A stretch of DNA of 64,000 nt. Source: Desulfococcaceae bacterium (lineage in GTDB: Bacteria; Desulfobacterota; Desulfobacteria; Desulfobacterales; Desulfosalsimonadaceae). The position numbers and the translations under genes are program-made. Below are positions 28,259 to 31,247 of the stretch, piece by piece (the stretch's first letter is position 1; each line of letters begins with the position of its first letter). Under the pieces are notes generated by a model that was not told the DNA's origin, did not search any database, and saw only the letters and a program-made list of their open reading frames with translations. The stretch covers positions 1 through 64,000 of the forward strand of contig JAQYVU010000014.1 in the NCBI GenBank assembly GCA_030145385.1, read 5' to 3'.

Positions 28259-28507
28259 ATGCCGATATATGAATTTCAATGCACTGATTGTGGCGAAAAA
28301 AAGGAAATCCTGTTTCGAAACAGTGATGAAAAAATAGAAATGAAATGCGATAAATGCGGATCTGAAAACCTGCAAAGGGTTTTAAGCTCGACCAACTTTT
28401 CCATGTCCGGAGGCTCGGGTGCCGGCACTTCCGGAGCGACCGCAAGTACTCATAAATGTTCCGGTGGATCCTGCACCACGTATGATATTCCCGGCCCCAC
28501 CAGATAA
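28259..28507 (+). CDS. FmdB-family zinc ribbon protein
   Basis: The 82-residue protein starts with MPIYEFQCTDCG and has a second pair CDKCG, giving the CxxC-x(n)-CxxC zinc ribbon of the FmdB regulatory protein family. A glycine-, serine- and threonine-rich tail follows, with two further cysteines (KCSGGSC). The family is widespread and its role is not settled; the original member was linked to formamidase/amide regulation. A strong ribosome site and its own promoter are visible. Confidence 0.92.
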   Translation: MPIYEFQCTDCGEKKEILFRNSDEKIEMKCDKCGSENLQRVLSSTNFSMSGGSGAGTSGATASTHKCSGGSCTTYDIPGPTR

Positions 28508-28510
28508 ATA

Positions 28511-28555
28511 ATCAATAAGGCATCCATTTCCAAAGAGGGTGGATGCCTTATTGAT
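28511..28555. terminator. Hairpin between convergent FmdB and selenoprotein genes
   Basis: ATCAATAAGGCATCCA and its exact reverse complement form a 16-bp stem around a 13-base loop. Neither side has a long U-tract, but the position between converging genes, overlapping the stop of the minus-strand gene, suits a bidirectional terminator. Confidence 0.7.
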
Positions 28556-29522
28556 ACTGCCTGATAATCCCGCTCGCTTCTTCAACCGCAAAATCCATCA
28601 ACTTCAGGCACCGGCTTGTACCTTTAACAAACGCCTGAAAATCGTCCCAGCCTGAAAATCGCTTTTCAGAGATATCCCGGCACTCAAATGATCCGGCCAT
28701 TTCTTTGAATTTTTTCACCACCTGTTTTCCGGCCTTAAACGGTTCTCCGGATCCAAACGGCTGGTCAACCAGCAGGTTGACATGACCAATGCCAAACCCT
28801 TTGATTGTTTTCCAGTACGACATATGCCTCACCGGCAACCCCAGCAGGACGTTAATTCCTGTTACTGCGCCTGCCAGCGCGCCGCAGACGCCGCCGGACA
28901 ACCCCACCCCGCCGTCAAACACAAAAGACAGGTTTTCAAGACGCCTGTTACCGATACCTGTATTTTCGCGGATCCCCTCCAAAACAGCCCGGGCACAATG
29001 CAATGTCCCCCCGGTTCTATTACCGGATGTTTTGCCTGAAACAGCCATTGACGGTTGTCGGGTCTGATACAGATAGCGCATTGAACCCCGAATATGCCGG
29101 AAGCATCCTGCCATACGATATACTGTTAAAAAATATTTCAATTGCCCCCAAGTGGAATAAAAATCGGTTCGGGTCCGTTCCCGGCATATGGTAGATCCGT
29201 AGGCCTTGTCAAACCAGTCAACATATTCGCCGACCTGGCGGAGCACTTTCTTTTCAGCCGGCAACCCTTTTGCTGTGATCTCTGATTCATGGTTCAGCGC
29301 AAGTCCCAGGGCGCCGCCGGAAACCACCCCACAGGTGGAACCGCAGGCCACACATCCACCTTCCAAACCGGTGACCGCTTTTATTAAACCATTATCCTGA
29401 AGTCCGGTCATATCCTGGAAGACTTCCAGGCTGGCCTGGGCTCAATTTAAGTCCTTTAACAGGCTGAATGCGGCACGTCGCCCCCAGTACTTTTCTTTTT
29501 TCGGATCATAACCGGTTTTCAT
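28548..29522 (-). CDS. Putative selenoprotein, C-GCAxxG-C-C family, two tandem domains (in-frame UGA = Sec27)
   Basis: Read from ATG 29522 (ribosome site AAGGAG), the frame runs 26 codons to an in-frame TGA at 29444-29442 and then stays open for 297 codons to 28548. The peptide around TGA is KDLN-U-AQASLEVF, where relatives of the C-GCAxxG-C-C redox family have an NCAQA-type cysteine, so TGA most likely encodes selenocysteine. A bacterial SECIS-like hairpin (CCTGGAA, loop GTC, TTCCAGG) starts eleven bases after TGA, the geometry of E. coli fdhF. The protein holds two homologous domains: the second has Cys (HCARAVLEG) and the CGALAG motif. A naive annotation would start at 29411 and lose the first catalytic position. 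Function is presumed thiol/selenol redox; partner unknown. Confidence 0.85.
29412..29444 (-). promoter_or_regulatory. UGA codon with bacterial SECIS-like hairpin
   Basis: After TGA (29444-29442) come eleven bases and then CCTGGAAGTCTTCCAGG, a 7-bp perfect stem with GTC loop. A G and U at the apical loop about 19 bases after the codon is what SelB needs in characterised bacterial elements. This was recognised by eye; no covariance search was run. Confidence 0.75.
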
Positions 29523-29569: not shown

Positions 29570-29605
29570 AAAGGGCAGAACCGATATGAACGGCCCTGCC
29601 CTTTT
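29570..29605 (-). terminator. Rho-independent terminator after the MopE-motif lipoprotein gene
   Basis: AAAGGGCAG pairs with CTGCCCTTT around 17 bases. On the minus strand TTTATTTTTTCT follows, giving a U-rich tail. It lies 71 bases past the stop at 29676. Confidence 0.8.
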
Positions 29606-29675: not shown

Positions 29676-31247
29676 TTAATCAAATGAAAAGTTTTCCAGC
29701 ATCCCGTCAACCATTGCCGTAACGTTCGGATTTTTGCAGGTGGTATCTGAAAAATCAAATGCCACATCACTGTTTAATTCATCAGAAGAAACAACCATGG
29801 TTCCTGCAGTTGCCACCTTCACGCCGTCACAGTCAGTTAAAACAATATGATTAAGTGTACAGCGATACGTTTTATCGGCCATCGAAAAGGTAACAATCCC
29901 GTCAACGTTACCGGCAGGGCTGTATTCAAAGTCCGCATCCGCATCAACATCATTGCCGTCCACCACATATGCGGCACTAAATTCCGCATTCGCTGATACC
30001 AGCATCTCGGTTGTTGATGAATAAACCGCGTCAATGGTCCCTTCCACATCACCGTTGCAGGTGTTCATATCAACAAATGCAATTTCACAAACCAGCTGCC
30101 CGGCTCCGTTTTCATAAATCTCAACTGCGGCAGTGCCATCAAGGCTGCAATCCGAACTTTGAACATTATTAAAAACAAGCGCTGCATTGGTGACATCATC
30201 TGCGATGTTAATCCCGCTGAGGTTTACAGTCCCGGATTTAAAAATGCAGTTGTCGCCCCCGGCACCGGAAAGGGTATACACCAGGGTGTTCCCCACCCGC
30301 TGGATGCTGCCGCAGGCGGAATCATAACCGTCGAACGCAGCCAGGAGCTGAAGTACCGTAGTGCCATCACCCAGAACTTCGTCCAGCCCCATTTCATCAA
30401 AAACAACCCCTATCATTTCAGAGGCTTCAGAAACTCCCCCGCCTTCACCCAGTGCCCTGGTCATTGCATCAAGCACCATTTCAAGGCCTTCAACCGTTTC
30501 TATATAATTCGGGTTGTAACTTAAATCCGATCCGTCACAATCCTCATCAACGTTATTTCCGCATATTTCCGTTGCACCTGGAAACGCATTGGGATCATTA
30601 TCATCACAATCCGAATAAGCACCATATCCGTCACCGTCATTATCAATGAACAGGTTAACGATCATATGATCAACGGCATCTGTCTCGCTTACCAGTTCTA
30701 TGCCGCTGCTGTAAACGGCCATCTGGGCTTCAAGATAATCTAACAGATCTTCTGCCATTGTTTCAAAATCACAGGCATCCGGATCAAAACAGAATTGAAC
30801 GCCAGCCTGCATCAGCATCCAGCTGTTGGCAACATCGGCCAATCCGGCCGGCAGTTCAATAATATCCTCACTTGCGTGGACATCCAACGTTTGAAGAAAC
30901 CTGGCAATATTGACCACGGCCGGGTCTTCAATATCCGCTGCTCCCGATACCAGATCCAGGGGAGACAGACTGTTTTTTGCCATTGCAGAACCTAATACAA
31001 TATTGCCGACAAAAAACGTAATCACATCACCTTTTTTATATTTGAACTCACCTATGGCGCTCGTAGTACCGGCAAATCCCCCCGGAACGGTTGAATACCC
31101 AAGACCGCTGACCATGGCGTCTTCGAAAACACCTGTCTGGGTAGAACTTCCGCCCCCTCCGCCGCAACTGACCGTCAAAAAAACAATAAACCCGAGTATC
31201 AGGATTGCAAAAACAGCGTTCACACATAATTTTGATTTGTCATTCAC
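29676..31247 (-). CDS. Lipoprotein with MopE-type metal-binding motif
   Basis: The 523-residue protein has a lipoprotein signal (LTVSC followed by a glycine-serine tether GGGGGSS). A central segment from about residue 200 to 243 reads DNDGDGYGAYSDCDDNDP, then PGATEICGNNVDEDCDGSD, which is the putative metal-binding (MopE, Cu or Ca) motif also found in surface proteins. The first 190 residues resemble repeats seen in secreted adhesin-like lipoproteins (FKYKKGDVITFFVGNIVLG); the C-terminal half is beta-rich and unclassified. The location is the outer membrane surface or periplasm. Function is not known. Confidence 0.85.
   Translation of the reverse strand: MNDKSKLCVNAVFAILILGFIVFLTVSCGGGGGSSTQTGVFEDAMVSGLGYSTVPGGFAGTTSAIGEFKYKKGDVITFFVGNIVLGSAMAKNSLSPLDLVSGAADIEDPAVVNIARFLQTLDVHASEDIIELPAGLADVANSWMLMQAGVQFCFDPDACDFETMAEDLLDYLEAQMAVYSSGIELVSETDAVDHMIVNLFIDNDGDGYGAYSDCDDNDPNAFPGATEICGNNVDEDCDGSDLSYNPNYIETVEGLEMVLDAMTRALGEGGGVSEASEMIGVVFDEMGLDEVLGDGTTVLQLLAAFDGYDSACGSIQRVGNTLVYTLSGAGGDNCIFKSGTVNLSGINIADDVTNAALVFNNVQSSDCSLDGTAAVEIYENGAGQLVCEIAFVDMNTCNGDVEGTIDAVYSSTTEMLVSANAEFSAAYVVDGNDVDADADFEYSPAGNVDGIVTFSMADKTYRCTLNHIVLTDCDGVKVATAGTMVVSSDELNSDVAFDFSDTTCKNPNVTAMVDGMLENFSFD

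What the first reader, a model, noticed from the sequence alone, without database searches (positions are those of the whole stretch)
28548..29522. In-frame UGA and SECIS-like hairpin reveal a selenoprotein with duplicated C-GCAxxG-C-C domains
Extending the frame upstream of 29411 passes through one TGA and reaches ATG 29522 with a good ribosome site. The residue encoded by TGA replaces the first conserved cysteine of the family (N-x-AQA), while the second domain keeps Cys (HCARAV) and CGALAG. A 7-bp perfect stem with GTC loop starts eleven bases after TGA, the same geometry as in fdhF of E. coli. Known: some C-GCAxxG-C-C proteins are annotated as (seleno)proteins. New here to my knowledge: tandem Sec-domain and Cys-domain in one chain.
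Basis: partly seen in the sequence, partly recalled or inferred. Interest (0 to 1): 0.85.

Follow-up and report, generated by a model that had tools for sequence, protein, structure and literature searches.

The report
Two-domain bacterial redox selenoprotein
A stop-like codon near the start of this bacterial gene is almost certainly read as selenocysteine, giving a protein made of two related domains of which only the first carries selenium; the family is already known to contain selenoproteins, so this is a well-supported variant rather than a new kind of thing.

Summary
Minus strand 29522-28548 is one 324-codon gene with TGA at codon 27 and a 7-bp hairpin 11 nt later. The chain is a duplicated C-GCAxxG-C-C protein (PF09719). 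Of 51 distinct sequences read at this codon, the window's included, 34 have TGA and 17 TGC/TGT; the first Cys of domain 2 is Cys in all 50 that hold it. The hairpin covaries and tracks TGA: mean stem 6.6 bp in Sec forms, 3.4 in Cys forms. The genome has tRNA-Sec, SelA and a TGA-containing SelD; SelB was not found in the assembly but is complete in a same-genus genome. The conventional start at 29411 is wrong. A review credits Sec in this family to papers of 2007-2008; only the tandem Sec-domain/Cys-domain layout may be new. I found no description of it, but the 2007 paper is not held and the 2008 one was seen in passages only. No neighbour gene is kept across the family and the fold prediction failed, so the biochemical role is inference.

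The parts
28548..29522 (-). Whole selenoprotein gene, 324 codons plus TAA stop, TGA at codon 27 read as Sec
   Evidence: relatives with one TGA at the same codon
29529..29534 (-). AAGGAG ribosome-binding site, 6 nt before ATG 29522
   Evidence: sequence; AAGGAG also 6 nt before the ATG in L042 and L043
29442..29444 (-). TGA codon for selenocysteine (residue 27)
   Evidence: TGA in 34 and TGC/TGT in 17 of 51 distinct sequences, the window's included, no other codon
29414..29430 (-). SECIS-like hairpin CCTGGAA-GTC-TTCCAGG, loop G 19 nt after the TGA
   Evidence: 4 of 7 pairs with changes on both sides, slid controls 0-1; tracks TGA against Cys
29043..29522 (-). Domain 1 (residues 1-160): Sec27, Cys64, Cys113, Cys140
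   Evidence: PF09719 best stretch 26-117; the four positions invariant in the 15 rows (Sec or Cys at 27)
28551..29042 (-). Domain 2 (residues 161-324): Cys176, Cys213, Cys281, Cys305; no Sec
   Evidence: TIGR01909 best stretch 175-314, whole protein 55.3 bits against cut-off 47.4; halves align at E 2e-6
29409..29411 (-). Downstream ATG that begins the 287-aa conventional ORF; judged a false start
   Evidence: one search lists the ORF; the sequence before it is conserved as protein
29570..29604 (-). Terminator-like hairpin (14 pairs, T-run) between the upstream gene and this gene, so the gene is probably its own transcription unit
   Evidence: pattern match only; 3 such sites in the region, 2.1 expected by shuffling

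Best explanation
The gene encodes a 324-residue selenoprotein. The ribosome reads UGA at codon 27 as selenocysteine, directed by the hairpin 11 nt downstream, using SelA, SelD, SelB and tRNA-Sec (supported by comparison, not by experiment). The protein is an old internal duplication of the C-GCAxxG-C-C domain. Each half keeps the same four positions: Sec27/Cys64/Cys113/Cys140 in the first, Cys176/Cys213/Cys281/Cys305 in the second (shown by alignment). Most likely mechanism (inferred): a thiol/selenol redox protein, probably cytosolic (no signal-peptide tool was run), in which Sec27 is the reactive nucleophile and a conserved Cys of domain 1, perhaps Cys64 in the TCGVVSGG motif, resolves it. 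Domain 2 would serve as a Cys-only redox partner, passing electrons within the pseudo-dimer, or hold a metal with its four Cys. Confidence is about 0.95 for Sec insertion and the tandem architecture, about 0.6 for redox chemistry at Sec27, about 0.25 for an electron relay between the two domains.
For: TGA or Cys, and nothing else, at one column in 51 of 51 distinct sequences, the window's included. The other seven Cys are invariant in the 15-row alignment. Before the TGA dN/dS is about 0.14-0.19 in three pairs, like the rest of the gene at 0.16-0.22. The hairpin covaries: 4 of 7 pairs changed on both sides, 95.7% of cells paired, slid controls 19-61%. Stem length 6.6 bp in 34 Sec against 3.4 bp in 17 Cys sequences, Mann-Whitney p 2e-7, not corrected for relatedness. 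Sec/Cys changes on the tree: 6, of which starred branches force 5; the hairpin goes the same way in 4.7 of 5 independent pairs on average and never the other way. Own genome: tRNA-Sec 75.1 bits, SelA 610.7 bits, SelD with its own in-frame TGA. Of the 33 Sec-form genomes given to or 73-74, 31 have tRNA-Sec and 27 SelB over the cut-offs, and all 33 have at least one.
Against: SelB is not in this assembly (the two best matches are EF-Tu-like, others are further GTPases). The hairpin by itself is unremarkable given the amino acids (33%; z -1.22), and the sign test cannot reach 0.05 with 5 pairs. The tree is a quick one and the tool warned that long branches meet. Four of 33 Sec rows in it lack a stem of 6 bp by my rule (L078, L099, L101, L102), and one Cys sequence, L081, has a 9-bp stem. 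Sec machinery is also present in four kin without a match to the gene and in Cys-form genomes, so its presence does not discriminate. Redox function rests on the family name and the Cys pattern only: no neighbour kept across the family, no usable fold (pLDDT 33.5).
Confidence: 0.93

Rival explanations
1. The real gene starts at ATG 29411 (287 aa) and the TGA lies in untranslated leader.
For: Mechanical ORF listing gives 28548-29411.
Against: The 26 codons before the TGA are conserved with dN/dS about 0.14-0.19, align with Cys relatives whose frames run straight through (L066-L068, L092, L094) and follow a ribosome site. The 287-aa product would lack the first conserved position of the family.
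Confidence: 0.02
2. The TGA is a nonsense mutation, sequencing error or sign of a decaying gene.
For: Any single in-frame stop could be one of these; one relative (L044) is frame-broken further on and G151 holds only a remnant.
Against: The same TGA is in 34 distinct sequences from many genera, always at this codon, with the rest of the frame open and the other Cys kept.
Confidence: 0.01
3. The TGA is read as another residue (for example Trp or Cys by readthrough), not Sec.
For: No direct chemistry is available.
Against: The only other codons found there are TGC/TGT; tRNA-Sec, SelA and SelD are present; a covarying SECIS-like hairpin accompanies TGA.
Confidence: 0.03
4. The protein is a selenoprotein, but the conserved Cys and Sec bind a metal or Fe-S cluster rather than doing thiol-disulfide chemistry.
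For: Four invariant positions per domain; the CGAxxG stretch has a weak match in split-Soret cytochrome c 1h21 (E 0.56; the NCBIfam split-Soret model hits 2 of 15 relatives).
Against: No conserved CxxC: the one in the window, Cys57-Cys60, is not kept in relatives. Repeated Sec/Cys exchange is more usual of a nucleophile (inference). No fold was obtained.
Confidence: 0.3

Closest known systems
C-GCAxxG-C-C family, PF09719 / TIGR01909 (named '(seleno)protein')
   Same: PF09719 matches at 118 bits with two stretches (cut-off 27); TIGR01909 is over its cut-off (55.3 against 47.4); motif Cys present
   Different: The single-domain members seen here, L038, L039 and L081, are all-Cys; this one is a tandem with Sec in the first half only
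C-GCAxxG-C-C selenoproteins 'form 1' and 'form 2' (Zhang and Gladyshev 2007 and 2008, as listed in PMC13188914)
   Same: Same Pfam family, one Sec per protein
   Different: Domain number and Sec position of the two forms are not given in the passages seen; the 2007 paper is not held. One of them could be this very tandem family
HUGP/GUXX-star fusion selenoprotein (NCBIfam NF045501; the review prints NF041212 for this name)
   Same: Residues 17-154, around the Sec, match model positions 14-154 (54.5 bits)
   Different: Far below the cut-off of 325; the review lists two Sec per protein, while here the second half is a second C-GCAxxG-C-C domain without Sec
DVU_1555 family C-GCAxxG-C-C protein (NCBIfam NF045669)
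   Same: Domain 1 matches (61.4 bits)
   Different: Below the cut-off of 103; the model has 140 positions, a single domain

Membership tests
C-GCAxxG-C-C family (PF09719, TIGR01909) | Score over the curated cut-offs | tested here: met
   PF09719 118 bits against 27; TIGR01909 55.3 against 47.4. Read from the genome without the TGA joined in, the TIGR01909 match is 37 bits, under the cut-off
C-GCAxxG-C-C family (PF09719, TIGR01909) | Four conserved Cys, one of them in the CGAxxG-type motif, per domain (motif reading partly recalled) | tested here: met
   Sec27/C64/C113/C140 and C176/C213/C281/C305 invariant in the 15 rows; in the wider set L080 has Ser and L084 a gap at the fourth
Bacterial selenoprotein | In-frame UGA aligned with Cys in relatives | tested here: met
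   34 TGA, 17 TGC/TGT of 51 distinct sequences
Bacterial selenoprotein | SECIS hairpin shortly 3' of UGA with G at the loop start (loop-G rule recalled) | tested here: met
   Loop G 19 nt after UGA; covariation; tracks UGA. No Rfam family matched the window; bSECISearch not available
Bacterial selenoprotein | selA, selB, selC, selD in the genome | tested here: inconclusive
   tRNA-Sec, SelA, SelD found; SelB not found in this assembly but complete in G105 of the same genus
Bacterial selenoprotein | Selenium shown in the protein | not testable with these tools
   Needs 75Se labelling or mass spectrometry
HUGP/GUXX-star fusion selenoprotein (NF045501) | Score over the curated cut-off of 325 bits | tested here: not met
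   54.5 bits
DVU_1555 family (NF045669) | Score over the curated cut-off of 103 bits | tested here: not met
   61.4 bits

The most novel reading that the evidence does not exclude
A so far undescribed selenoprotein family: an old tandem pseudo-dimer in which one half uses Sec and the other is held at Cys. Sec and Cys have been exchanged several times in the first half, even in genomes that still decode Sec, and in none of the sequences seen in the second, which would mean that the two halves do different jobs in one electron relay.
Probability: 0.4. Interest if true: 0.5.

Novelty: new variant of a known kind. Interest (0 to 1): 0.38.

Why it matters
A conventional ORF search starts this gene 111 nt too late and loses the presumably reactive residue; its Sec relatives are open to the same error (no annotation of them was seen here). 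The family is a natural experiment: related proteins with Sec or Cys at one residue, nearly all in genomes that carry Sec machinery, inside a chain that holds its own Cys-only copy of the domain as an internal control. That makes the question of what Sec adds over Cys directly testable.

Tried and rejected
Start at 29411 without the TGA: rejected on conservation and dN/dS. Nonsense mutation: rejected on spread. The hairpin as sole evidence: weak, since 33% of synonymous redraws reach the same stem length. Gene neighbourhood: 19 regions compared (window, L043, L044, L048-L063). Shared neighbours are an FmdB zinc-ribbon gene in 3 of 19 (window, L043, L044), loose superfamily matches (response regulators in 7, AMP-ligases in 4, alpha/beta-hydrolase-like in 4), and synteny between pairs of close kin (window with L048, L049 with L050); nothing runs through the family. 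PDB by sequence: no hit for the single protein, three weak profile hits, of which two are snake-venom proteinases and 1h21 alone makes sense. AlphaFold2 with the three admissible rows failed (pLDDT 33.5), so no fold search was made and the second folding job was not used. The contig-end match C188:17-91 was first taken for a SelB start; it is an EF-Tu start, and my note is wrong on that point. Papers: Zhang and Gladyshev 2007 and Haft and Tolstoy 2025 are not held. Passages of PMC12013277 and PMC8318568 were seen and gave nothing on this family.

Full report
Observation. The minus-strand frame 29522-28548 reads as 324 residues with a single TGA at codon 27. AAGGAG lies 6 nt before the ATG. The 7-bp stem CCTGGAA/TTCCAGG with loop GTC starts 11 nt after the TGA. 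Of 2644 TGA triplets on both strands of the window, 14 are followed by a perfect stem of 7 bp or more of that kind and 138 if G-T pairs are allowed. Redrawing synonymous codons reaches a stem as long in 33% of draws, because the encoded LEVFQD favours it; over the 15 sequences tested the fractions run from 0.055 to 0.57. The hairpin therefore needed comparative support.

Identity. Pfam finds PF09719 (C_GCAxxG_C_C) at 118 bits with two stretches. NCBIfam gives TIGR01909 over its cut-off, best stretch 175-314, and two other models under theirs. Searched in the genome without the TGA joined in, TIGR01909 gives one place, this gene, at 37 bits, under the cut-off. All 15 members of the alignment match the TIGR01909, DVU_1555 and HUGP/GUXX-star models at E up to 0.001, and 2 match split-Soret cytochrome c. 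The two halves align to each other at E 2e-6, with Sec27 opposite Cys176. In a quick tree of 15 first halves, 15 second halves and 3 single-domain proteins, the second halves form one group (support 91, unstarred) and the first halves need two changes. This suggests that the duplication is older than the split between the sub-families seen here.

Relatives. A search with the protein found matches in 17 of 194 genomes of the order at E up to 1e-8. A profile of 15 relatives found matches at E up to 1e-25 in 19 of 395 genomes of the phylum and 37 of 389 of the class. All three counts include this genome. I read the codon at the TGA column in the loci fetched: 65 rows, with several genes fetched twice, reduced to 51 distinct sequences, the window's included: 34 TGA, 17 TGC or TGT, no other codon. 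Left out of that count: L033, L038, L039, L042 (the gene of L024), L041 and a second fragment of L044 (both lack the column), and five matches that got no locus (G676, G648, G640, G699, G672, each listed with 1 TGA). The first Cys of domain 2 is Cys in all 50 distinct sequences that hold it (L081 is single-domain). The eight positions are invariant in the 15-row alignment, Sec or Cys at the first. In the wider set L080 has Ser and L084 a gap at the fourth position, and L031, L044 and L078 end before the last one or two.

SECIS. In 10 Sec sequences of the window's clade, 4 of 7 stem pairs have a change on both sides (C-G to U-A, G-C to C-G, A-U to G-C twice), 95.7% of cells pair, and 2 of 500 shuffles reach the covariation score. 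Slid versions have at most 1 such pair and at most 61% of cells paired. The L034-L036 sub-family keeps another stem, AATCCAG/CTGGATT and its compensated variants, with a loop that starts 28 nt after the TGA and holds GG. L029 and L032 have stems with a GGA loop that starts 27 nt after the TGA. In Cys sequences the stem is mostly gone: mean 3.4 bp against 6.6. On a 48-row quick tree (L081, L041, L044 and L084 left out), Sec and Cys change 6 times, 5 forced by starred branches. In 5 independent pairs the hairpin (stem of 6 bp or more) goes with Sec in 4.7 on average and against it in none. With 5 pairs the sign test cannot pass 0.05, and the tool warned of long branches that meet. Exceptions: Sec rows L078, L099, L101 and L102 score as without such a stem, and Cys L081 keeps 9 bp.

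Coding before the TGA. dN/dS before the TGA is about 0.14 (window-L042), 0.16 (window-L043) and 0.18 (L042-L043); after codon 37 it is about 0.16, 0.19 and 0.22 (26 codons before the TGA, so rough). The stretch behaves as coding.

Machinery. This genome has tRNA-Sec (75.1 bits), SelA (610.7 bits) and SelD in two contig-end pieces that share sequence, with an in-frame TGA in what I recall as the usual Sec place. SelB was not found: the best matches are EF-Tu-like, and the short match at the end of C188 is an EF-Tu start. The assembly is 97% complete in 209 contigs, and the same-genus genome G105 has a full SelB. Of the Sec-form genomes I gave 33 to or 73-74 (G676, G648, G640, G699, G672 and the hosts of L043 and L044 were not given): 27 have SelB and 31 tRNA-Sec over the cut-offs, 25 both, and all 33 at least one. 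Of the 12 Cys-form genomes have SelB and 11 tRNA-Sec, all 12 at least one. Cys forms thus live in genomes that can apparently still decode Sec. Four genus or family members without a match (G160, G059, G137, G178) have both as well, so the machinery does not single out carriers of the gene.

Function. A terminator-like hairpin at 29604-29570 separates the upstream gene and the 3' neighbour, an FmdB-type zinc ribbon, is convergent, so the gene probably stands alone. Over 19 regions no neighbour is kept across the family. AlphaFold2 from three rows is unusable. The role as thiol/selenol redox protein, with domain 2 as an internal Cys-only partner, is inference from the conserved Sec/Cys pattern and the family's name 'putative redox-active protein'.

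Literature. PMC13188914 (2026 review; passages and part 2 of 3 of the reference list seen) lists C-GCAxxG-C-C selenoproteins form 1 (Zhang and Gladyshev 2007) and form 2 (2008), one Sec each, and the HUGP/GUXX-star fusion with two. PMC9312934 (passages seen) lists the family too. PMC2398784, the 2008 paper (12 of 13 passages seen), reports new families among them hypothetical proteins GOS_A to GOS_C; it does not hold the string GCAxxG, and I could not tell which, if any, is form 2. PMC4103992 (one passage seen) lists a C_GCAxxG_C_C protein seen only in acetone-grown Desulfococcus biacutus; whether it is tandem I do not know. Searches gave listings (titles and abstract starts, capped at 20 rows) in which I saw no tandem Sec/Cys member, and one search found no paper. 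Most subscription papers are not held, and I read no paper whole.

Verdict. A selenoprotein gene on strong comparative evidence, new variant of a known kind. The tandem with Sec confined to the first half is the only possibly new element.

Noticed in passing
L020 (G000:C68 end) and L019 (G000:C112 start): SelD of this genome is itself interrupted by an in-frame TGA (VRAAGUAAKLSPG), so it is probably a selenoprotein; the two contig ends share sequence within it.
   Followed up: partly
L081 (G448), after the TGC codon: A single-domain Cys member has a 9-bp SECIS-like hairpin after its Cys codon, perhaps a recent Sec-to-Cys change or chance.
   Followed up: no
window 28259-28507 (+): FmdB-type zinc-ribbon gene (PF09723) convergent with the selenoprotein gene, found beside it also in L043 and L044.
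   Followed up: partly
L041 (G013:C83): A relative whose first domain is truncated and joined in frame to a membrane-like N-terminus.
   Followed up: no
G160, G175, G013; G320, G493, G527: Three genomes have two SelB matches over the cut-off, the weaker one close to a second tRNA-Sec gene; three others have two or three tRNA-Sec matches.
   Followed up: no
window 29676-31247 (-): Lipoprotein-like 523-aa ORF with a putative metal-binding (MopE-type) motif just upstream, with a relative in L048.
   Followed up: no
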